A DNA stretch of 64,000 bases from an uncultured Pelagibacteraceae bacterium (GTDB taxonomy: Bacteria > Pseudomonadota > Alphaproteobacteria > Pelagibacterales > Pelagibacteraceae), in assembly GCA_902599335.1 (NCBI GenBank), contig CACKFA010000006.1, positions 1 through 64,000 on the forward strand. Reading direction: 5' to 3'. Made by a program: the position numbers and the translations under genes. Positions 24,180-51,017 of this stretch are shown here, one piece after another. The first letter of the stretch is position 1, and each line of letters opens with the position of its first letter. The notes beneath the pieces were generated by a model. It had not been told where the DNA came from and made no database searches. It was given only the letters and a program-made list of their open reading frames with translations.

Positions 24180-25637
24180 ATGAACAAAATCGTATGGTTC
24201 AGGAACGATCTACGTGTATCTAATAATGATGCTTTTAACGAAGCTATAAAATCAGGAAAGATTTTACCAATTTACATATTTGATAAAGAATATCACAAAT
24301 TACCTACATCAAGCTCATTCCATTTAGATTTTTTAAAATCATCATTAGACGATTTATCAAAAACACTAAGTGAAAAATATAATGCTAAACTCAATATATA
24401 TTATGGAGATACATTAGAAATTTTAAGTCATTTAACTGATATATATAAAATAAATGATGTTTATTCAAATATAATATTCAAGAACATGTATATAACTAAC
24501 TTAGATAAAGAAGTTAGTTTTTTATTTAAAGAAAAAAATATTAACTGGAGAATATCAAATCAATTTGGCGTTCAACTAAATCATAGAATTAGAAATAAAT
24601 GGTCATATAATTGGAATAAATTTATAGATAGTAAAAGCGCTAATTCAAATTTAAATTGTGAGTTTATTTCAGATGATTATGTAGAAGATTTATCGAAAAT
24701 AAAAACAAATAATTTAGAATATGGAAAAATTCAAATTGGCGGAAGACAAAATGCACTTCAACTTTTAGACTCATTCCTTAATGACAGATCAGAAAATTAC
24801 CAAAAAGAAATGTCTTCACCAATAACTGGAGAAACTTCTTGTTCTAGATTAAGTCCTCATATTGCATTCGGAAATATTTCTATTAAAGAAATTTTTACAA
24901 AAACTAACCATAAATTAAAATCCAAATTGTCTTTTTCAAAAAAGAAATCTTTAATTGCATTTAAAAGTCGATTAGCTTGGCACTGTCATTTTATTCAAAA
25001 GTTATATGATGAACCAGAAATTGAATTTAGAAATATGAATAGCGCTTATAATGGAATAAGAGAAAATGATTTTAATGAAGATTATCATTTAGCATGGAAA
25101 AATGGAACTACTGGTTATCCCTTTGTTGATGCTTGTATGAGGTACCTTAGAACTAATGGATGGATTAATTTTAGAATGAGAGCAATGTTAGTTTCATTTG
25201 CGTCTTATCAATTATGGCTTGATTGGAAAAAAACATCAAAACATTTAGCAAAATTATTTACAGATTATGAGCCAGGCATTCATTATTCACAATTTCAAAT
25301 GCAATCAGGAACAACAGGAATAAATTCAATAAGAATTTACAATCCAATTAAACAATCAATTGATCAAGATCCTAACGGAGATTTTATCAAAAAATGGGTG
25401 CCAGAATTAAAAGAAATACCCAATAAATTAGTCCATGAGCCATGGAAACTAACCTATATTGATCAAAAGGGCCTAGGTATTGAGATAGGAAAACATTATC
25501 CAAATCCAATTGTTGATCACCATTCTTCATCAAAGATTGCAAGAGATAAGATTTGGATGGTTAAAAAAACAGAAGAGGCAAAGTTTAATGCCAAAAAAAT
25601 CTTAGAAAAGCACGCAAGTGTTAAGGGAAGACGATAA
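24180..25637 (+). CDS. phrB: Deoxyribodipyrimidine photo-lyase / cryptochrome family
   Basis: 485 aa. N-terminal alpha/beta antenna domain (IVWFRNDLRVSNNDAF) and C-terminal FAD domain (SRLSPHIAFGNIS, FVDACMRYLRTNGWINFRMRAMLV-type core, HYSQFQMQSGTTG). These blocks fit class I CPD photolyases and close cryptochrome-like relatives, which use light to reverse UV pyrimidine dimers. The region after HYSQFQMQSG reads TTGINSIRIYNP rather than the common STGTD...RIFNP, so it may belong to a distinct subgroup. Repair activity is likely but not certain. Confidence 0.86.
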   Translation: MNKIVWFRNDLRVSNNDAFNEAIKSGKILPIYIFDKEYHKLPTSSSFHLDFLKSSLDDLSKTLSEKYNAKLNIYYGDTLEILSHLTDIYKINDVYSNIIFKNMYITNLDKEVSFLFKEKNINWRISNQFGVQLNHRIRNKWSYNWNKFIDSKSANSNLNCEFISDDYVEDLSKIKTNNLEYGKIQIGGRQNALQLLDSFLNDRSENYQKEMSSPITGETSCSRLSPHIAFGNISIKEIFTKTNHKLKSKLSFSKKKSLIAFKSRLAWHCHFIQKLYDEPEIEFRNMNSAYNGIRENDFNEDYHLAWKNGTTGYPFVDACMRYLRTNGWINFRMRAMLVSFASYQLWLDWKKTSKHLAKLFTDYEPGIHYSQFQMQSGTTGINSIRIYNPIKQSIDQDPNGDFIKKWVPELKEIPNKLVHEPWKLTYIDQKGLGIEIGKHYPNPIVDHHSSSKIARDKIWMVKKTEEAKFNAKKILEKHASVKGRR

Positions 25638-41668: not shown

Positions 41669-42151
41669 CTAATTTAACATAATTAAGCTTGTATTCAGAA
41701 TTAGTGCAAAGCTACACCAAAGTAAATATGGAATCATTAAGTAGGCGCTCAACATCTTGACGCGTTTAAATCTTAAAATTAGGTTAATTATCAATGCTAT
41801 TAGAATGATTAATACTATTACAGCCAAGACCATATTATGAAAAACAAAAAAAACTACACTCCAAGTTGTATTGAAAATTAAATGAATAAAGTAAATATAA
41901 ACAGTATTCATTTCTCTACTTTTAGTATGCCAATAAAGCCATATAGAGAAAGTCATCATTAAATAAAGAGATGTCCAGACAGGACCAAATATCCAATCTG
42001 GAGGATTAAAAGTTGGTTTATTTAATAGTGAGTACCAAGGTTCTTTAAATGTAATTGTAGACAAACCTCCAATGAATGAGGCAGAGAATGTAATAGCAAG
42101 AAACAACAAAAATGTTAAAAATTTGTTTTTAAGCATATTAAATATATACAT
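41669..42151 (-). CDS. TspO/MBR family protein
   Basis: 160 aa with five membrane helices and the TspO signature: FTPPDWIFGPVWT-like (here FNPPDWIFGPVWTSLYL) and a Trp-rich core (IHLIFNTTWSVVFF). TspO proteins bind porphyrins and steroids and in Rhodobacter dampen photosynthesis gene expression under oxygen. The family also occurs with photolyases and stress genes. It lies two bases after the DAO gene start and is divergent from the SDR gene by eight bases. Confidence 0.92.
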   Translation of the reverse strand: MYIFNMLKNKFLTFLLFLAITFSASFIGGLSTITFKEPWYSLLNKPTFNPPDWIFGPVWTSLYLMMTFSIWLYWHTKSREMNTVYIYFIHLIFNTTWSVVFFVFHNMVLAVIVLIILIALIINLILRFKRVKMLSAYLMIPYLLWCSFALILNTSLIMLN

Positions 42152-42918: not shown

Positions 42919-43467
42919 TTAATCTTTTACAAATACAACTGTTAATTCTGCTACTTTAAAACCAAATTTTGTCATAGTTGCTCTATTTATTGCAACTCTA
43001 TCATCTTGTTTAAAAATCCAATCATCAAAAGTGATTTTTATCTCTTTACCTTTGACTGGAACTAATAAAACATATTCAAATTTAAATGCAGGTCCATAAG
43101 AATAACCTTTCGCTTTACCTACAACATCACCTGCTGTTCCCTCATAATTGTGCTCATCAATTTTATTTATTTTCCATTCTCGGTCTTGAACCTCACCATC
43201 ATCCCAATTAAATTTTTCTTTAAGAATTAGCTGCTTTCCATCCCATGTTCCATTTAAGTCTGCAGAAAATTGTCTTGTAACTTTTCCTGATCTATTTTGT
43301 AGAACACCCCAAGCCTTAACATTTCCAGATAAATATTCCTCAATGATTAATCTTGGTTCTTTATTTTTAAAATCTTCTGGTTTCATAGCGCTATTATTCG
43401 AGCAACTTGTAGTTAAGAATAATAAAATTATCAACGAAATTGGCTTAATAATTTTTATATGTCGCAT
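42919..43467 (-). CDS. DUF3833 family lipoprotein-like protein
   Basis: About 182 aa with an N-terminal lipoprotein signal (IILLFLTTSCSNN, Cys as candidate lipidation site). The core resembles DUF3833: EEYLSGNVKAWGVLQNRSG, LNGTWDGKQLILKE and FNWDDGE. The ORF track starts at ATG 43479, but the ATG at 43467 has GGAGA five bases upstream and gives the better signal peptide, so it is chosen. It ends the flavin oxidase-DUF1365-Cfa operon and is probably an envelope partner. Confidence 0.8.
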   Translation of the reverse strand: MRHIKIIKPISLIILLFLTTSCSNNSAMKPEDFKNKEPRLIIEEYLSGNVKAWGVLQNRSGKVTRQFSADLNGTWDGKQLILKEKFNWDDGEVQDREWKINKIDEHNYEGTAGDVVGKAKGYSYGPAFKFEYVLLVPVKGKEIKITFDDWIFKQDDRVAINRATMTKFGFKVAELTVVFVKD

Positions 43468-43483
43468 AAATATCTCCATTATT

Positions 43484-44662
43484 TTATTTATTTTGCATTG
43501 AAAACTGAATTAGATCTATATTTTTTGACTTAAATCCAGCCTCACAATAAGAAAGGTAAAACTCCCACATTCTTTTAAATGTTGAGTCAAAACCTTGATT
43601 TTTTATTAAATCCCATTTTTTTAAAAACTCATTTCTCCATATAGCCAATGTATTTGCATAATGATCAGCGTAAGAAATATATGAATTAACAGTTAAACCG
43701 TTGTCAGAAACGTATCGATTAATGCTATTTTTATTTGGCAAAAAACCACCTGGAAAAATATATTTTTGAATAAAATCTTGTTTGTTTTTATATCTATCAA
43801 ATAACCTATCATCGATAGTAATTGCTTGAATAGCTGCTTTGCCACCATCAGATAAGTTATTTTTAATAGTTTTAAAATAACCCTCTAAATAATTTTGACC
43901 AACTGCCTCAATCATCTCTATAGAAGCAATTGAATTGTATTTGCCTTTAAGATCTCTGTAATCTTTTATTTCAATATTTACTTTTTCGTTTAAACCACAA
44001 TTAAAAATTCTTTCTTTTGCGTATTCAAATTGTTTTTTTGATATTGTAATACAGTCTAGTTTAACATCGTATTTTTTACCTAGATACTCGGCAAAACCTC
44101 CCCAACCACATCCTATTTCTAAAATTTTGTCACCATTATTTGGTCTTATTAGATCAATTAATTTTTGATATTTGTTATTTTGAGCATCAGATAGATTTTT
44201 TGATTTATCATCAAAAATAGCGCTAGAGTATGTAAGTGTGTCATCTAACCAAAGAGAAAAAAAATCATTACCTAGATCATAATGTCTAGCAATATTTTCT
44301 TTGCTTCTACTTTTTGTATTTTTAATAATTTTATTTTTTACAAAATTAATTATTGGAAAATCAAGAAGGCCTGAGAATTTATGTATTACTTCTATATTTC
44401 TTGCAGTTAATTCGATTAAATTTGATAAGTTATTAGTTTCAAATTCACCTCTCATGTAGCTCTCAGCAAATCCAATACTACCACCTCTAATTAAATTATA
44501 ATTAAAATCTGGTTTTTTGATTGAAATATTTGCATGCAATTTTTCATTTGGATTTCCAAACTTTAAAACTTTTCCGTCATGTGTAGTAAGCTCTAGATAA
44601 CCATAATTTATTTTATTAAGAAATTTAAAAACTAATTTATCTGCAGTGTTATTTAAAAACAT
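43484..44662 (-). CDS. Cyclopropane-fatty-acyl-phospholipid synthase-like methyltransferase
   Basis: 392 aa. SAM motif LEIGCGWGGFAEYL (181-194) and E252 in MIEAVG follow E. coli Cfa, which acts on unsaturated chains of membrane phospholipids. Two bicarbonate ligands differ by my alignment: E. coli C139 (YSCAYW) is S147 here (YSSAIF), and H266 (LLHTIG) is Q279 (IQAITI). That suggests a product other than a cyclopropane, such as a methyl-branched chain. It overlaps the DUF1365 stop by one base. Confidence 0.86.
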   Translation of the reverse strand: MFLNNTADKLVFKFLNKINYGYLELTTHDGKVLKFGNPNEKLHANISIKKPDFNYNLIRGGSIGFAESYMRGEFETNNLSNLIELTARNIEVIHKFSGLLDFPIINFVKNKIIKNTKSRSKENIARHYDLGNDFFSLWLDDTLTYSSAIFDDKSKNLSDAQNNKYQKLIDLIRPNNGDKILEIGCGWGGFAEYLGKKYDVKLDCITISKKQFEYAKERIFNCGLNEKVNIEIKDYRDLKGKYNSIASIEMIEAVGQNYLEGYFKTIKNNLSDGGKAAIQAITIDDRLFDRYKNKQDFIQKYIFPGGFLPNKNSINRYVSDNGLTVNSYISYADHYANTLAIWRNEFLKKWDLIKNQGFDSTFKRMWEFYLSYCEAGFKSKNIDLIQFSMQNK

Positions 44663-45426
44663 TAATTTTCTACTGTTATATTATTTTTAATTTTAAATTT
44701 TTTCTTAATTAATTTAATTCCTTTAAACCACAATTTAAACGCTTCAAAATGTATCGCAGAGATAATTTTAAATGTCATTAAAGGGTGTTGAAGATAAGAA
44801 TTCATTAAGTTTTTACTTGTCAAAGCAGATCTTTCACCATCTTGAGATGCAAAAAGAATTTTTCCTTCTTGATCATATTGATTAATTACAACTGACAACT
44901 TCTGGTCTGGATTTAATATTCTAAAAAAATAATTACAATCCATTTCAATGAATGGTGAAACATGAAATTTTTTTGAGCAATTATTTTGAATTAATTTATT
45001 TTGTCCCTCAACTTTAAAAACATATGTGTGTTGCTCACCAAATGTATTTTTAACCTCATATAATATAGAAATTAAATTATCATTATTATCGTATACAAAA
45101 AAAATACTTAGTGGATTAAAAACATAACCAAATATTCTTGGATAGCATAAAAGTTTAATTTTTATATTATCTGTTGTGATTTCGTTACTAATTAGATTTT
45201 TTTTTACCCACTCAAAAAGAGATGAACCATCACGGTCACCATGATCTTTTTCGTAAAAACTAATAAGATTAAATTTATTTAATGAAAAAAATTTTAATTT
45301 ATTATTAAGCTCATTTAACTCTGATAGATCAATGAAAAGTGAAAATACTTTATATTTAAAAAAATGTTCTTTTGGTTTAAATCTCTTATGGATTACGTTT
45401 CCATTATATATACAAGAACTAATCAT
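44662..45426 (-). CDS. DUF1365 family protein
   Basis: 254 aa. Typical blocks: YNGNVIHKRFKPKEHFFKYK at the start, ERDHGDRDG-like loop (here EKDHGDRDGSSL), YPRIFGYVFNPLSIFF and HVSPFIEMDC. DUF1365 genes almost always lie beside Cfa-like genes and a flavin amine oxidase, as here, and are thought to act in fatty-acid modification; biochemical function is not established as far as I know. It overlaps both neighbours. Confidence 0.88.
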   Translation of the reverse strand: MISSCIYNGNVIHKRFKPKEHFFKYKVFSLFIDLSELNELNNKLKFFSLNKFNLISFYEKDHGDRDGSSLFEWVKKNLISNEITTDNIKIKLLCYPRIFGYVFNPLSIFFVYDNNDNLISILYEVKNTFGEQHTYVFKVEGQNKLIQNNCSKKFHVSPFIEMDCNYFFRILNPDQKLSVVINQYDQEGKILFASQDGERSALTSKNLMNSYLQHPLMTFKIISAIHFEAFKLWFKGIKLIKKKFKIKNNITVEN

Positions 45427-46657
45427 TAAGGTTTTTCAGCATTTCAAGAGATGATTTTATTCCATCTTCATGAAATCCGTAACCAAAATAACTGCCACAA
45501 AAAAGTAAATCTTTTTGATTTTGTATTTTAATCAGCTCTGATTGAGCATCTAATGCTTTTTGATCGTAATATGGATGTGTAAATTTTACTTTTTTCAATA
45601 TTTTTTTCTCATCAATATTGAAGTAAGGATTTAGTGTTAAGAAAATATTTTCATCACACTTTAAATTTTGCAATAAATTTAACCAGTAGGTTATTGAATT
45701 TTTCTCTAAATTCTTGTCATCTATAGATGAATTCCAAGAAGACCAAGCCTTTTTATTTTTTGGCATGGCCCGCTGATCTGTATGTATGTAAGCTATATTT
45801 TCTTTGTAGCTAAAATTCGAAAGAATATTTCTCTCATCCTCAGTTGGATTTTCAATTAACTTTAAGGCTTCATCAGCATGTGTTGCCAAAATAACCTTGT
45901 CGTAATCAAAAAATTCACTTTCTCCACCGTAATATAAATCTAGTCCTGACATTTTTCTTTTTATTTTTGTAACTTTATAATTTTTATAATGTTCCCCACT
46001 TAATTGTGAAATTATTTTACTAACATAGGTTCTGCTTCTATTGGTTACTGTGTACCACTGTGGTCTATTTTTCAATTTAAACAAACCATGATTTTGGAAA
46101 AATCTAAGAAAAAAACTAATTGGCATTTTGCTTGCTTCATAAGGAGGCATAGACCAAATTGCAGATACCATTGGTATTATATGATAATCAACAAATGTTT
46201 TGGATAATTTATTAATTTTTAAATATTCACCTAAGGTAATTTTGTCATTGGATATGATTGCTTGATCACTTTTTTTATAAAATTTAATTATATCAAAAAA
46301 CATTTTTAAGAAATCAATGTTAAATAGATTTGATTTATTGCAGAAAATCCCACTCAATCCTTTTCCACAATATTCAAATTTCGTATTATCTACTGAAACT
46401 GAAAAAGACATGTTGCTTTTTTCAATTTGAATATCATTTTCCTTAAAAAAATTAATTAAATTTGGATAAGTTTGAAAATTAAAAACAATAAAGCCAATAT
46501 CAACTGATACTTTTTTTTCATCAAAAAACAAATCTATAGTATGAGAATGTCCACCAAAATGGTCTTCTCTTTCGAAAAGATCTACATGATGTTTTTTAGA
46601 TAAATAATAAGCAGCACTTAGTCCAGAAATACCTGACCCAACGACAGCAATTTTCAT
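45419..46657 (-). CDS. FAD/NAD(P)-binding amine-oxidase-like flavoprotein
   Basis: 412 aa with the FAD motif VAVVGSGISGLSAAYYL (about residues 3-19), then VDLFEREDHFGGHSHTID. This is the predicted NAD/FAD-binding protein type that accompanies DUF1365 and Cfa-like genes. A role in desaturating or oxidising acyl chains is plausible; flavin-dependent steps of this kind are known in furan fatty-acid synthesis in alphaproteobacteria. First gene of the four-gene minus-strand set; six bases from gcvP. Confidence 0.84.
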   Translation of the reverse strand: MKIAVVGSGISGLSAAYYLSKKHHVDLFEREDHFGGHSHTIDLFFDEKKVSVDIGFIVFNFQTYPNLINFFKENDIQIEKSNMSFSVSVDNTKFEYCGKGLSGIFCNKSNLFNIDFLKMFFDIIKFYKKSDQAIISNDKITLGEYLKINKLSKTFVDYHIIPMVSAIWSMPPYEASKMPISFFLRFFQNHGLFKLKNRPQWYTVTNRSRTYVSKIISQLSGEHYKNYKVTKIKRKMSGLDLYYGGESEFFDYDKVILATHADEALKLIENPTEDERNILSNFSYKENIAYIHTDQRAMPKNKKAWSSWNSSIDDKNLEKNSITYWLNLLQNLKCDENIFLTLNPYFNIDEKKILKKVKFTHPYYDQKALDAQSELIKIQNQKDLLFCGSYFGYGFHEDGIKSSLEMLKNLND

Positions 46658-46663
46658 TAATTA

Positions 46664-49534
46664 TTATGCTGCATCTTCTTTAAACTCATCCATACTTGGA
46701 CAAGTACAAAAAATATTTTTATCTCCATACACGTTATCAACTCTTGCAACTGGAGGCCAAAATTTATTTGCTTTTAAGAATTTTGCAGGATATGCAGCTT
46801 GCTCTCTTGAATATTTATGTTTCCATTCATCTGAAGCTAATTCAATATCGGTGTGAGGTGCATTTTTAATAGGGTTATCTACTTTGTCAAACTTACCGGA
46901 CTTAACCATATCTATTTCCTCTTTAATGCTAATCAAAGTATCACAAAATCTATTCAGTTCAGATAAACTCTCGCTCTCTGTTGGCTCTATCATCATTGTT
47001 CCAGCAACTGGCCATGACATTGTTGGTGCATGAAATCCATAATCTATTAATCTTTTAGCTATATCTTCTTCTGTAATTCCTGTTTCAGTTTTAATAGATC
47101 GAATATCAATTATACATTCATGAGCTACATTGCCATTTGAACCTTTATAAAGAATTGGATAATGGTCTTTTAATCTATTTGCAATGTAATTTGCATTGAG
47201 TATTGCAATTTGTGTTGCAAGTTTTACACCCTCTGATCCCATCATCTTAATATACATCCAAGAAATTGATAATATACTTGAGCTTCCCCACGGAGCTGCT
47301 GAAACGGCACCTATTCCACTTGCAGGTCCACAATCTTTTACAACTGGATGATTAGGTAGATAAACTTGTAAATGTCTTTTACATGCTATAGGTCCCATTC
47401 CAGGTCCTCCTCCACCATGTGGGATACAGAATGTTTTATGTAAGTTTATATGACAAACATCAGGACCAAAATTTCCTGGTTTCGCAACTCCAACAAGTGC
47501 GTTTAGGTTTGCTCCATCCATATAAACTTGACCACCATGTTTATGAATTACTTCACATATATCTTTAATTTTTTCCTCAAATACACCATGTGTTGATGGA
47601 TAAGTTACCATCAATGCACCAAGATTGTCTGAATGCAATTCAGCTTTTTTCTTTAAATCCTCAAAATCAACATTTCCTTCTTTATCACAATCAACAACTA
47701 CAACTTTCATTCCAACCATCTGTGCACTTGCTGGATTAGTTCCATGTGCTGAGCTTGGAATTAAACATATATTTCTATTTTCATCCCCTCTATCTAAATG
47801 ATACTTTCTTATTACCATTAAGCCAGCATACTCACCTTGGGCTCCCGCATTTGGCTGAAGTGAAACACCAGAAAAACCAGTAATAGATCTTAACCAATTT
47901 TTAAGATCTGTGAACATTTCTCTATATCCCTCCATCTGTTCGACAGGTACGAATGGGTGGGGCTCAGCCAATTCTCTCCACGAAATAGGTATCATTTCTG
48001 CAGTAGCATTTAATTTCATAGTACATGAACCTAGAGCAATCATTGTTCTATTAAGAGCTATATCCTTATCCTCTAACTTTTTAAGATATCTAAGCATTTC
48101 TGTCTCTGAATGATATGAATTAAAAACAGGGTGTTCTAAATATTTTGAAGTTCTTAATAAATTGTTTGGTAGATTTGGTAAACTAACAGTTGGATCCTCT
48201 TTTTTAATTGACTCTGCAGCATTAAATATTTTTAGTAGTTGGTTTACTCTATAAACATTTTTTCTTTCGTCGAAAGAAACAGCCAGCATCTCTGAATTTA
48301 CTTTTCTAATATTAACTTTTTGGTCTAAAGCATTTTTGAAAATCTGATCTGTCTTTTCTTTGGTTATAATAGTTACAGTATCAAAAAAATAATCTGAGTA
48401 TAATTCATATCCAGATTGTTTTATTTTATCTGCAAAATTTTTTGCTAGTTGAGATACTCTTTCGGAAATACTTTTAATTCCATCAGGGCCGTGATAAATG
48501 GCATATGCTGCTGAAACAATTGCTAGTAAGGCTTGAGCAGTACAAATATTACTTGTAGCTTTGTCTCTTCTAATATGTTGCTCTCTAGTTTGTAATGACA
48601 ATCTATAGGCCTGGTTTCCATGCCTGTCCACTGAAACCCCAACAATTCTACCTGGCATAGATCGTTTGTATTCATCTTTTGTTGCAAAAAAGGCTGCATG
48701 AGGTCCTCCATAACCCATTGGAATACCAAATCTTTGGGAACTACCGACTGCAATATCTGCTCCAAGCTCTCTTGGTGTTTTTAGCATAGAAAGTGCAAGG
48801 AGATCACAAACTAAAATTGCTTTTCCATTTTTTTTATGAATTTTACTTATGGCCTCACTAGGATCTTTAATATCACCTAAAGTTCCTGGATATTGTAAAA
48901 CTCCGCAAACAATATCTTCTTTTAACTGCTCTAGAACTTTATCCTCGTTTCCAACAAGTACTTTAAGACCCATTGGCTCTGCTCTAGTTTGAATAACGTC
49001 AATTGTTTGTGGGTGGCAGTTCTCTGAAACAAAAACTAAATTACTATCACTTTTATCAAGTCTATGACTTAAACCCATAGCTTCGGCAGCTGCTGTTCCT
49101 TCATCAAGTAAAGACGCGTTTGCTATATCCATTCCTGTAAAATCAACAATCATTTGTTGAAAGTTTAATAGCATCTCTAATCTACCTTGTGCTACTTCAG
49201 GCTGATAAGGTGTGTATGATGTGTACCATCCAGGATTTTCTAATATATTTCTTAAAATTACATAAGGTGTGTAGGTTCCATAATAACCCATGCCTATAAA
49301 ATTTGAGTAAATTTGGTTTTTTTTTGAAATTGCTTTTAATTTTCTTAAAGCTTCATATTCTGAATTTGGTTCACCGATATTTAATTCACCTTTAAACTGA
49401 ATCTTTTCTGGTATGGTACTATTAATAAACTCATCTAATGACTTAAAGTTAAGATCTTTAAGCATTTTTTCTTGGTCCTTCTCAGATGGACCTATGTGTC
49501 TTCTAATAAAATCTTTTTGTGAATTATGTAACAT
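46664..49534 (-). CDS. gcvP: Glycine dehydrogenase (decarboxylating), GcvP
   Basis: P protein of the glycine cleavage system, single 956-aa chain. The PLP-binding Lys is in INLHKTFCIPHGGGGPG; the N-terminal FIRRHIGPSEKDQEKML and SNFIGMGYYGTYTP are family signatures. It decarboxylates glycine and passes aminomethyl to lipoyl-GcvH. Its ATG overlaps the gcvH stop by one base. Under control of the glycine riboswitch ahead of gcvT. Confidence 0.97.
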   Translation of the reverse strand: MLHNSQKDFIRRHIGPSEKDQEKMLKDLNFKSLDEFINSTIPEKIQFKGELNIGEPNSEYEALRKLKAISKKNQIYSNFIGMGYYGTYTPYVILRNILENPGWYTSYTPYQPEVAQGRLEMLLNFQQMIVDFTGMDIANASLLDEGTAAAEAMGLSHRLDKSDSNLVFVSENCHPQTIDVIQTRAEPMGLKVLVGNEDKVLEQLKEDIVCGVLQYPGTLGDIKDPSEAISKIHKKNGKAILVCDLLALSMLKTPRELGADIAVGSSQRFGIPMGYGGPHAAFFATKDEYKRSMPGRIVGVSVDRHGNQAYRLSLQTREQHIRRDKATSNICTAQALLAIVSAAYAIYHGPDGIKSISERVSQLAKNFADKIKQSGYELYSDYFFDTVTIITKEKTDQIFKNALDQKVNIRKVNSEMLAVSFDERKNVYRVNQLLKIFNAAESIKKEDPTVSLPNLPNNLLRTSKYLEHPVFNSYHSETEMLRYLKKLEDKDIALNRTMIALGSCTMKLNATAEMIPISWRELAEPHPFVPVEQMEGYREMFTDLKNWLRSITGFSGVSLQPNAGAQGEYAGLMVIRKYHLDRGDENRNICLIPSSAHGTNPASAQMVGMKVVVVDCDKEGNVDFEDLKKKAELHSDNLGALMVTYPSTHGVFEEKIKDICEVIHKHGGQVYMDGANLNALVGVAKPGNFGPDVCHINLHKTFCIPHGGGGPGMGPIACKRHLQVYLPNHPVVKDCGPASGIGAVSAAPWGSSSILSISWMYIKMMGSEGVKLATQIAILNANYIANRLKDHYPILYKGSNGNVAHECIIDIRSIKTETGITEEDIAKRLIDYGFHAPTMSWPVAGTMMIEPTESESLSELNRFCDTLISIKEEIDMVKSGKFDKVDNPIKNAPHTDIELASDEWKHKYSREQAAYPAKFLKANKFWPPVARVDNVYGDKNIFCTCPSMDEFKEDAA

Positions 49535-49914
49535 TAGCTTGATGTCTCCTTTGCAAATTTATCGTATTCTTCTTTGTTCATTAAAGTATCTAGCTCAGAT
49601 GTGTCTTTAATTTTCAATTTAAAAAACCATGCACCACCTTCAGGGTCCTCATTTATTTTGGCAGGATCATCCACTATAGACTGATTGGTATCTACCACTT
49701 CACCACTTACTGGAGTATAAACATCACTAGCAGCTTTCGTAGATTCTACTACTCCTGCTGTACCATCTTTTTCAACATTAGATCCTTTTTCAGGCAGTTC
49801 TGCAAAAACTATGTCTCCAAGCATTTCAGTTGCATGTTTTGTAATTCCTATTGTGGCTACATCTCCCTCCAAAGTAATCCACTCATGTTCTTTAGAAAAT
49901 TTTACTTCACTCAT
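49534..49914 (-). CDS. gcvH: Glycine cleavage system H protein
   Basis: 126-aa lipoyl carrier that shuttles the aminomethyl group among P, T and L proteins. The lipoylated Lys is K60 in [15 protein letters not shown]. Length and fold are standard. It overlaps gcvT and gcvP by one base each, giving a compact gcvT-H-P operon. Confidence 0.97.
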
Positions 49915-51017
49915 TAATTTACTCCTTTCACATAATTTTTTTTATAAAATGGTAATGCGCAAACATTTGCTGGATGTTTTTTTCCTCTTACCTCAAGCAA
50001 AATTTTAGTATCAACCTTTGAAAACTCTTTATCAACATAACCCATCGCTATAGGACCGTTTACACTTGGTCCAAACGTTCCACTAGTTATCTCACCAATT
50101 TGTTTATCTGTATCATCAAATATTTTTGTTTTTTCTCTTGCAATCAGTCTACCTTCAGGCTTAATCCCTACTCTTATTTTGCTTGCTCCATCTTGCATTT
50201 GGTTCATAATTTTTTTTGATCCAATAAAACCTCCATTAGATAATCTAGATTTTGAGATTGCCCATCTAAGGTTTGCCTCAACTGGTGTTTTATTAATATC
50301 TAATTCGTGACCATATAAACATAATCCAGCTTCTAATCTCAAGGTATCTCTTGCCCCAAGTCCTATAAGTTGTGCTCCCTTTTCTATTAAATTTTCAACG
50401 AATTTTTCCGCTTTATCGTTAGAAATTGAAATTTCAAACCCGTCTTCCCCTGTATAACCTGATCTTGTTACAAATAATTTTTGATTATCAGAATCAAACC
50501 AATTTCCTGTCATAAAACTTAGTTGATCAACCCCATTTATAATTGAGTTTAAAATTTCAACAGACTTAGGTCCTTGAATTGCTATTAAAGATCTATTGTT
50601 ATCTAAGTTCATTTTAAATTTTGAACCTAGTAAATTAGATAAAATCTCAAAATCTTTATCTTTGCATGCAGCATTTAAGATAATTAAATACCCCTCCTCT
50701 ATTTTAGTGATAATTAAGTCATCATAAATTCCAGCATCTTCATTCATTAAAAAACTATACTTAGAGCAGTTTTGTTTTAAATTTTTTAAATCTAATGGAA
50801 AAATTTTTTCTAATTCTTCTGTTAAACTTTCATCGCCATATATAAATAATTGACCCATATGAGATACATCAAATATTCCAGAATTAGATCTTGTGAATTT
50901 ATGTTCTTCAATAATGCCTTTGCTATACTGAATTGGCATTTCATAACCAGCGAATTCAACAAACTTAGCTTTGTTACTTTGATGAAGTTTATTTAGTGAT
51001 GTTTTTTTTATTTCCAT
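49914..51017 (-). CDS. gcvT: Aminomethyltransferase GcvT
   Basis: T protein: moves the methylene group to tetrahydrofolate and releases ammonia. 367 aa with [32 protein letters not shown] and [20 protein letters not shown]. The ATG lies four bases downstream of the second aptamer of the glycine riboswitch, so the ribosome site overlaps or directly follows the regulatory fold. It could in principle also belong to the sarcosine/DMG branch of the family, but the operon settles it as GcvT. Confidence 0.96.

What the first reader, a model, noticed from the sequence alone, without database searches (positions are those of the whole stretch)
43484..44662. Cfa-like enzyme with two altered bicarbonate ligands
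Cyclopropane synthases hold bicarbonate as the base that closes the ring. By my alignment, E. coli C139 and H266 are S147 and Q279 here, while the SAM motif and E252 remain. The enzyme may methylate or methylenate acyl chains without forming a ring.
Basis: partly seen in the sequence, partly recalled or inferred. Interest (0 to 1): 0.57.

Follow-up and report, generated by a model that had tools for sequence, protein, structure and literature searches.

The report
Furan fatty acid methylase (UfaM)
The gene is a small-genome, probably marine, bacterium's version of UfaM, a known enzyme that adds a methyl group to a membrane fatty acid without making a ring, and it sits beside the two partner genes that finish a furan fatty acid; the two odd residues are normal for this enzyme family.

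Summary
In detail: S147 and Q279 stand where E. coli Cfa has C139 and H266, while E252, I281 and Y335 are kept. It is not a peculiarity of this protein. Every full-length Cfa-like protein I sampled next to a DUF1365 gene (37 of 37) has Ser/Ala/Gly plus Gln. 63 of 77 unlinked ones have Cys plus His. In a tree built without those two columns, the window protein lies in a 75-row, all-Gln clade (support 99) with the only Cfa-like protein of three close relatives of Rhodobacter sphaeroides, where UfaM was characterised. Directly upstream are UfaO (DUF1365) and UfaD (FAD oxidoreductase) genes, in the proven R. palustris order ufaD-ufaO-ufaM. Best reading: UfaM, which methylates cis-vaccenoyl lipid to 11-methyl-12-trans-18:1, the first step to a furan fatty acid. 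The stated reason fails: cotton GhCPS1 carries the same Ser and Gln and makes cyclopropanes. A separate Cys/His paralog is the likely true Cfa. New details are modest: further clade-defining residues (E249, A253) and linkage to the glycine-cleavage operon.

The parts
43484..44662 (-). UfaM orthologue: SAM-dependent cis-vaccenoyl methylase (CMAS family), 392 aa; S147, E249, E252, A253, Q279, I281, Y335
44662..45426 (-). UfaO orthologue (DUF1365, 261 bits), 254 aa; 1 bp overlap with ufaM
   Evidence: about 29% identity to the Cereibacter UfaO
45419..46657 (-). UfaD orthologue (FAD-binding amine-oxidase fold), 412 aa; overlaps ufaO by 8 bp
   Evidence: about 36% identity to the Cereibacter UfaD
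42919..43479 (-). DUF3833 protein, 186 aa (R. sphaeroides RSP1088 is also 186 aa), directly downstream of ufaM
   Evidence: conserved next to ufaM in the genus and in Azospirillum; RSP1088 length from PMC7380195
42160..42918 (+). SDR oxidoreductase, convergent with the operon, a common companion of the cluster (R. sphaeroides RSP1087 is similar in size, 245 aa)
41669..42151 (-). TspO/MBR protein, conserved neighbour in the genus
46664..51017 (-). gcvT-gcvH-gcvP directly upstream on the same strand (6 bp gap to ufaD)
   Evidence: conserved in six of seven genus members examined

Best explanation
The gene encodes UfaM, the first enzyme of the bacterial furan fatty acid pathway. [quoted passage not shown] UfaD then desaturates this to the 10,12-diene, and UfaO uses O2 to close a monomethyl furan. 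Shown here: family, clade, residue states, gene order, partner genes, and a FabA route to unsaturated chains. Shown by others in relatives: the chemistry. Inferred: that this orthologue does the same. Speculative: that the clade-specific carboxylate E249 takes over the role of bicarbonate.
For: Operon order ufaD-ufaO-ufaM identical to R. palustris RPA2571-2570-2569, which are necessary and sufficient for the furan fatty acid (PMC7380195); same cluster across the genus and in Azospirillum beside RpoE/ChrR. The window protein falls in an all-Gln clade (SH-aLRT 99) containing the only Cfa-like proteins of three Cereibacter species close to R. sphaeroides, which carry Ser/Gln too. 37 of 37 full-length DUF1365-linked homologues share Ser/Ala/Gly plus Gln. 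Expression of Halomonas UfaM in E. coli gives 11-methyloctadec-12-enoate (PMC12089945). The genome has a separate Cys/His paralog for cyclopropanation and FabA with an adjacent FabB-like gene.
Against: No activity has been tested for this protein. It shares only about 39% identity with the Cereibacter UfaM. I compared with close relatives of R. sphaeroides, not with the RSP2144 sequence itself. Plant cyclopropane synthases carry the same Ser/Gln residues and a UfaD-like domain yet make rings, so membership alone does not strictly exclude ring closure.
Confidence: 0.9

Rival explanations
1. It is a cyclopropane synthase after all, like the plant-type enzymes that carry the same Ser/Gln pair.
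For: Cotton GhCPS1 (S602, Q737) and GhCPS2 make C17 and C19 cyclopropanes in yeast, and E. coli C139S keeps 31% activity (PMC3132707).
Against: The gene lies in a furan operon with ufaD and ufaO; the genome already has a Cys/His Cfa paralog; the Agrobacterium oxidase-linked homologue gave no cyclopropanes in yeast (PMC3132707); characterised bacterial UfaM yields the methyl-alkene (PMC7380195, PMC12089945).
Confidence: 0.05
2. It is a methylenating 10-methyl fatty acid enzyme (BfaB/TmsB type), with the flavoprotein acting as a reductase.
For: Both systems pair a Cfa-like protein with an FAD protein (PMC7791843).
Against: BfaB candidates were chosen because they conserve the Cfa bicarbonate site (PMC7791843), which this clade does not; a DUF1365 (UfaO) gene lies between the two here; the protein's own clade groups with UfaM. 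BfaB sequences were not placed in the tree.
Confidence: 0.03
3. The S147/Q279 changes are a lineage-specific decay or neofunctionalisation in a reduced genome.
For: The host genome is small and AT-rich (1.27 Mb, window 27-31% GC).
Against: The changes are fixed throughout the UfaM clade, in large genomes as well; the ORF is intact and 64-99% conserved in the genus.
Confidence: 0.01

Closest known systems
UfaM (R. sphaeroides RSP2144; R. palustris RPA2569), cis-vaccenate 11-methyltransferase
   Same: Same clade, same Ser/Gln active-site state in the Cereibacter orthologues, same operon order as R. palustris, all three pathway genes present.
   Different: About 39% identity to the Cereibacter proteins; no ChrR found in the genome; the cluster follows gcvTHP instead.
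E. coli Cfa (6BQC) and other bacterial cyclopropane synthases
   Same: CMAS family, SAM motif, E239, I268 and Y317 equivalents kept.
   Different: C139, Y141, G236, H240 and H266 are replaced by S147, I149, E249, A253 and Q279; no operon link to DUF1365.
Cotton and Sterculia plant cyclopropane synthases (GhCPS1/2)
   Same: Ser and Gln at the same two positions (GhCPS1); an FAD oxidase domain fused to the Cfa domain (PMC3132707); the Arabidopsis relative resembles UfaD and UfaM (PMC10940516).
   Different: They form rings; fused proteins; no sequence was available here to place them in the tree.
MmaA4/Hma hydroxymycolate synthase of M. tuberculosis (2FK7)
   Same: Non-ring-forming CMAS member with Glu146 and Gln at the positions of window E249 and Q279.
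   Different: Keeps the Cys; acts on mycolate chains and adds a hydroxyl; not placed in the tree.
BfaB/TmsB 10-methyl stearate methyltransferase
   Same: Cfa-like methyl transfer without a ring, paired with an FAD protein.
   Different: Reported to conserve the Cfa bicarbonate site (PMC7791843); product reduced to a methyl branch; no UfaO.

Membership tests
UfaM (furan fatty acid methylase) | CMAS-family SAM methyltransferase | tested here: met
   PF02353 at 280 bits, SAM motif kept; N-terminal DUF7884 match is below its cut-off
UfaM (furan fatty acid methylase) | Groups with UfaM of R. sphaeroides relatives, apart from Cfa | tested here: met
   75-row clade, SH-aLRT 99, holding Cereibacter L168-L170; RSP2144 itself not held
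UfaM (furan fatty acid methylase) | Partner genes ufaD and ufaO in the genome | tested here: met
   DUF1365 and FAD protein directly upstream; related to the ufaD-ufaO pair of Cereibacter
UfaM (furan fatty acid methylase) | Converts cis-vaccenoyl lipid to 11-methyl-12-trans-18:1 | not testable with these tools
   needs expression and GC-MS
UfaM (furan fatty acid methylase) | Host has the FabA/FabB route to cis-vaccenate | tested here: met
   FabA over the NCBIfam cut-off in a 170-codon open frame, with a beta-ketoacyl synthase (FabB-like) ORF alongside; lipid content itself not tested
Cyclopropane fatty acid synthase (Cfa) | Cys139 and His266 bicarbonate ligands | tested here: not met
   Ser147 and Gln279; the genome's other paralog has Cys/His
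Cyclopropane fatty acid synthase (Cfa) | Glu239, Ile268, Tyr317 | tested here: met
   E252, I281, Y335
Cyclopropane fatty acid synthase (Cfa) | Passes the NCBIfam Cfa equivalog cut-off | tested here: not met
   258 bits against a cut-off of 400 (NF008686); 260 against 600 (NF053839)
BfaB/TmsB 10-methyl fatty acid methyltransferase | Conserved Cfa bicarbonate site, as reported | tested here: not met
   Ser/Gln in place of Cys/His; criterion from PMC7791843

The most novel reading that the evidence does not exclude
In the UfaM clade the bicarbonate base of cyclopropane synthases has been replaced by a protein carboxylate: Gly236 to Glu249 together with His266 to Gln279. The same Glu/Gln pair occurs in MmaA4, a non-ring-forming mycobacterial member, so this pair, not the Cys-to-Ser change, may help steer the reaction from ring closure to alkene or alcohol.
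Probability: 0.2. Interest if true: 0.5.

Novelty: new member of a known kind. Interest (0 to 1): 0.25.

Why it matters
It corrects an annotation that reads as cyclopropane synthase and gives a simple sequence rule (Gln at the His266 position, Glu at the Gly236 position) that separated UfaM-clade proteins from Cfa-type proteins in the set compared. It also predicts that a lineage of small-genome, low-GC bacteria, probably marine plankton, makes furan fatty acids, a possible bacterial source of the furan acids found in fish. I found no paper in the held library linking furan fatty acids to such plankton, but that library is incomplete.

Tried and rejected
Viral contigs: no encoded relative found. 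ChrR anti-sigma factor in the window's genome: none, so R. sphaeroides-style control is not supported. One tree row with an apparent Ser/Gln state (L157) lies among the Cys/His proteins and looks like an alignment shift (HQ in place of H). Six short DUF1365-linked methyltransferases carry His, not Gln; they form their own branch and may be FufM-type second methylases, not UfaM.

Full report
OBSERVATION. The ORF at 43484-44662 on the minus strand is intact (392 aa) and a clear member of the cyclopropane synthase family (PF02353, 280 bits). phmmer alignments against solved structures and a multiple alignment put S147 at E. coli C139 and Q279 at H266. The SAM motif, E252 (E239), I281 (I268) and Y335 (Y317) are kept.

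HOW GENERAL IT IS. In the genus, every orthologue that covers both sites has Ser and Gln; the more distant paralog in the same genomes (window genome C2:130037-131161, 33% identity) has Cys and His where examined. In an evenly drawn sample of 150 genomes of the same phylum I located DUF1365 and CMAS genes and fetched 120 regions. Of 43 CMAS genes near a DUF1365 gene, 37 are full length, and all have Gln with Ser (30), Ala (6) or Gly (1). The other six are short, divergent methyltransferases that keep His and form their own branch. Of 77 unlinked CMAS genes, 63 have Cys and His, 3 have Met and His, 10 have the window's Ser/Gln state and one is an apparent alignment shift. Seven of the ten unlinked Ser/Gln genes are in genomes that hold a DUF1365 gene elsewhere, as in R. 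sphaeroides, where ufaM is remote from ufaD and ufaO (PMC7380195, PMC12089945).

PHYLOGENY. A maximum-likelihood tree of 153 sequences, built without the two columns in question, places the window protein in a 75-row clade of Gln-bearing proteins (SH-aLRT 99; quick search, LG+G4, no bootstrap). To anchor that clade I reached three genomes of close relatives of R. sphaeroides (Cereibacter johrii, Luteovulum azotoformans, C. ovatus). Each has one match to the window protein, with S and Q in the two positions, and it falls in this clade. Their ufaD and ufaO homologues sit together elsewhere in the genome. The R. sphaeroides and R. palustris sequences themselves were not held.

GENE CONTEXT. Upstream on the same strand are a DUF1365 protein (UfaO family) and an FAD amine-oxidase-like protein (UfaD family); reading frames overlap by 1 and 8 bp. 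Downstream are DUF3833, a convergent SDR gene and TspO. The order ufaD-ufaO-ufaM equals R. palustris RPA2571-2570-2569, which are necessary and sufficient for the monomethyl furan fatty acid (PMC7380195). The same cluster occurs across the genus, in Azospirillum next to RpoE and ChrR, and on Burkholderia, Pseudoalteromonas, Plesiomonas and Streptomyces plasmids. The window's genome has no ChrR match. In six of seven genus members examined the cluster directly follows gcvT-gcvH-gcvP with gaps of a few bases, which suggests co-transcription; that is an inference.

FUNCTION. UfaM methylates cis-vaccenate to 11-methyl-12-trans-18:1; UfaD makes the 10,12-diene; UfaO adds O2-derived oxygen to give the furan (PMC7380195). 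Halomonas UfaM in E. coli gave 11-methyloctadec-12-enoate (PMC12089945; that host kept its own cfa). The window's genome has FabA in an open frame and, beside it, a beta-ketoacyl synthase ORF that looks like FabB, the usual route to cis-vaccenate. No FufM-like second methylase was seen: the only other CMAS matches in the genome are the Cys/His paralog and two weak partial hits, in a genome 92.6% complete. So a monomethyl furan is predicted. All functional steps for this protein are inferred.

Cotton GhCPS1 has Ser602 and Gln737 at the same two positions, and GhCPS1 and GhCPS2 produce C17 and C19 cyclopropanes in yeast (PMC3132707). The paper prints "Q737, I729 and Q734" for the three cotton enzymes, so the GhCPS2 residue is ambiguous in its text. 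E. coli C139S keeps 31% catalytic efficiency (same paper). The substitutions therefore mark the clade but do not by themselves decide the product. In the same study an Agrobacterium oxidase-linked homologue gave no cyclopropanes, as would be expected of a UfaM; the authors did not identify it as such.

FURTHER RESIDUES. Comparing 86 UfaM-clade with 68 Cfa-type sequences, the sharpest differences are S147/C139, I149/Y141, E249/G236, A253/H240 and Q279/H266. E249 and Q279 were invariant in the UfaM-clade set. MmaA4, a mycobacterial family member that makes a hydroxylated methyl product, also has Glu and Gln at these two positions, whereas the other mycolic acid synthase sequences aligned (CmaA1, 1TPY, 1L1E, UmaA) have Gly and His. 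In MmaA4 fragment structures Glu146 and Glu149 bind a water together with Ser178 (PMC8708032). This makes E249 a candidate replacement for bicarbonate. It is untested; UmaA, which has Gly and His, is itself reported to make a methyl-branched trans alkene (PMC8708032), so the pair cannot be the only route to a non-ring product, and the plant residue at that position could not be checked here.

VERDICT. Correct observation, known enzyme, new member in a lineage with small genomes. The host was not identified: genome 1.27 Mb in 23 contigs, window GC 27-31%, one genus alone in its family among the sampled relatives. SAR11/AEGEAN-169-like marine plankton is a guess from these features.

Noticed in passing
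46657-46664 and 46664-51017: ufaD starts 6 bp after gcvP on the same strand; gcvTHP-ufaD-ufaO-ufaM-DUF3833 looks like one transcription unit and is conserved in six of seven genus members examined (L180 is the exception).
   Followed up: partly
L001 and L100 (window genome C2:130037-131161): The same genome has a second Cfa-like gene with the canonical Cys/His ligands, the likely true cyclopropane synthase; sampled relatives in the neighbouring family usually have only a match of this weaker kind.
   Followed up: partly
L047, L057, L064, L069, L078, L086: Short CMAS-like methyltransferases near DUF1365 in other genomes form a separate branch and may be FufM-type second methylases making dimethyl furans.
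   Followed up: no
L035, L038, L043: On Burkholderia, Pseudoalteromonas and Plesiomonas plasmids the furan cluster also carries a chalcone isomerase-family gene (and DUF2878 in the latter two) of unknown role.
   Followed up: no
L039: A Streptomyces plasmid carries FAD oxidase-DUF1365-UfaM-like-DUF1295, the furan gene order in an actinomycete, with Ser/Gln in the methylase.
   Followed up: no
L038 (Pseudoalteromonas): This UfaM-clade protein is the one sampled case with Cys kept but His changed to Gln, which shows the two changes are separable.
   Followed up: no
24180-25637: An ORF that reads like a cryptochrome/photolyase lies in the same window; a photolyase gene sits beside the furan cluster in Pseudoalteromonas (L038), in line with a light-stress role.
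   Followed up: no
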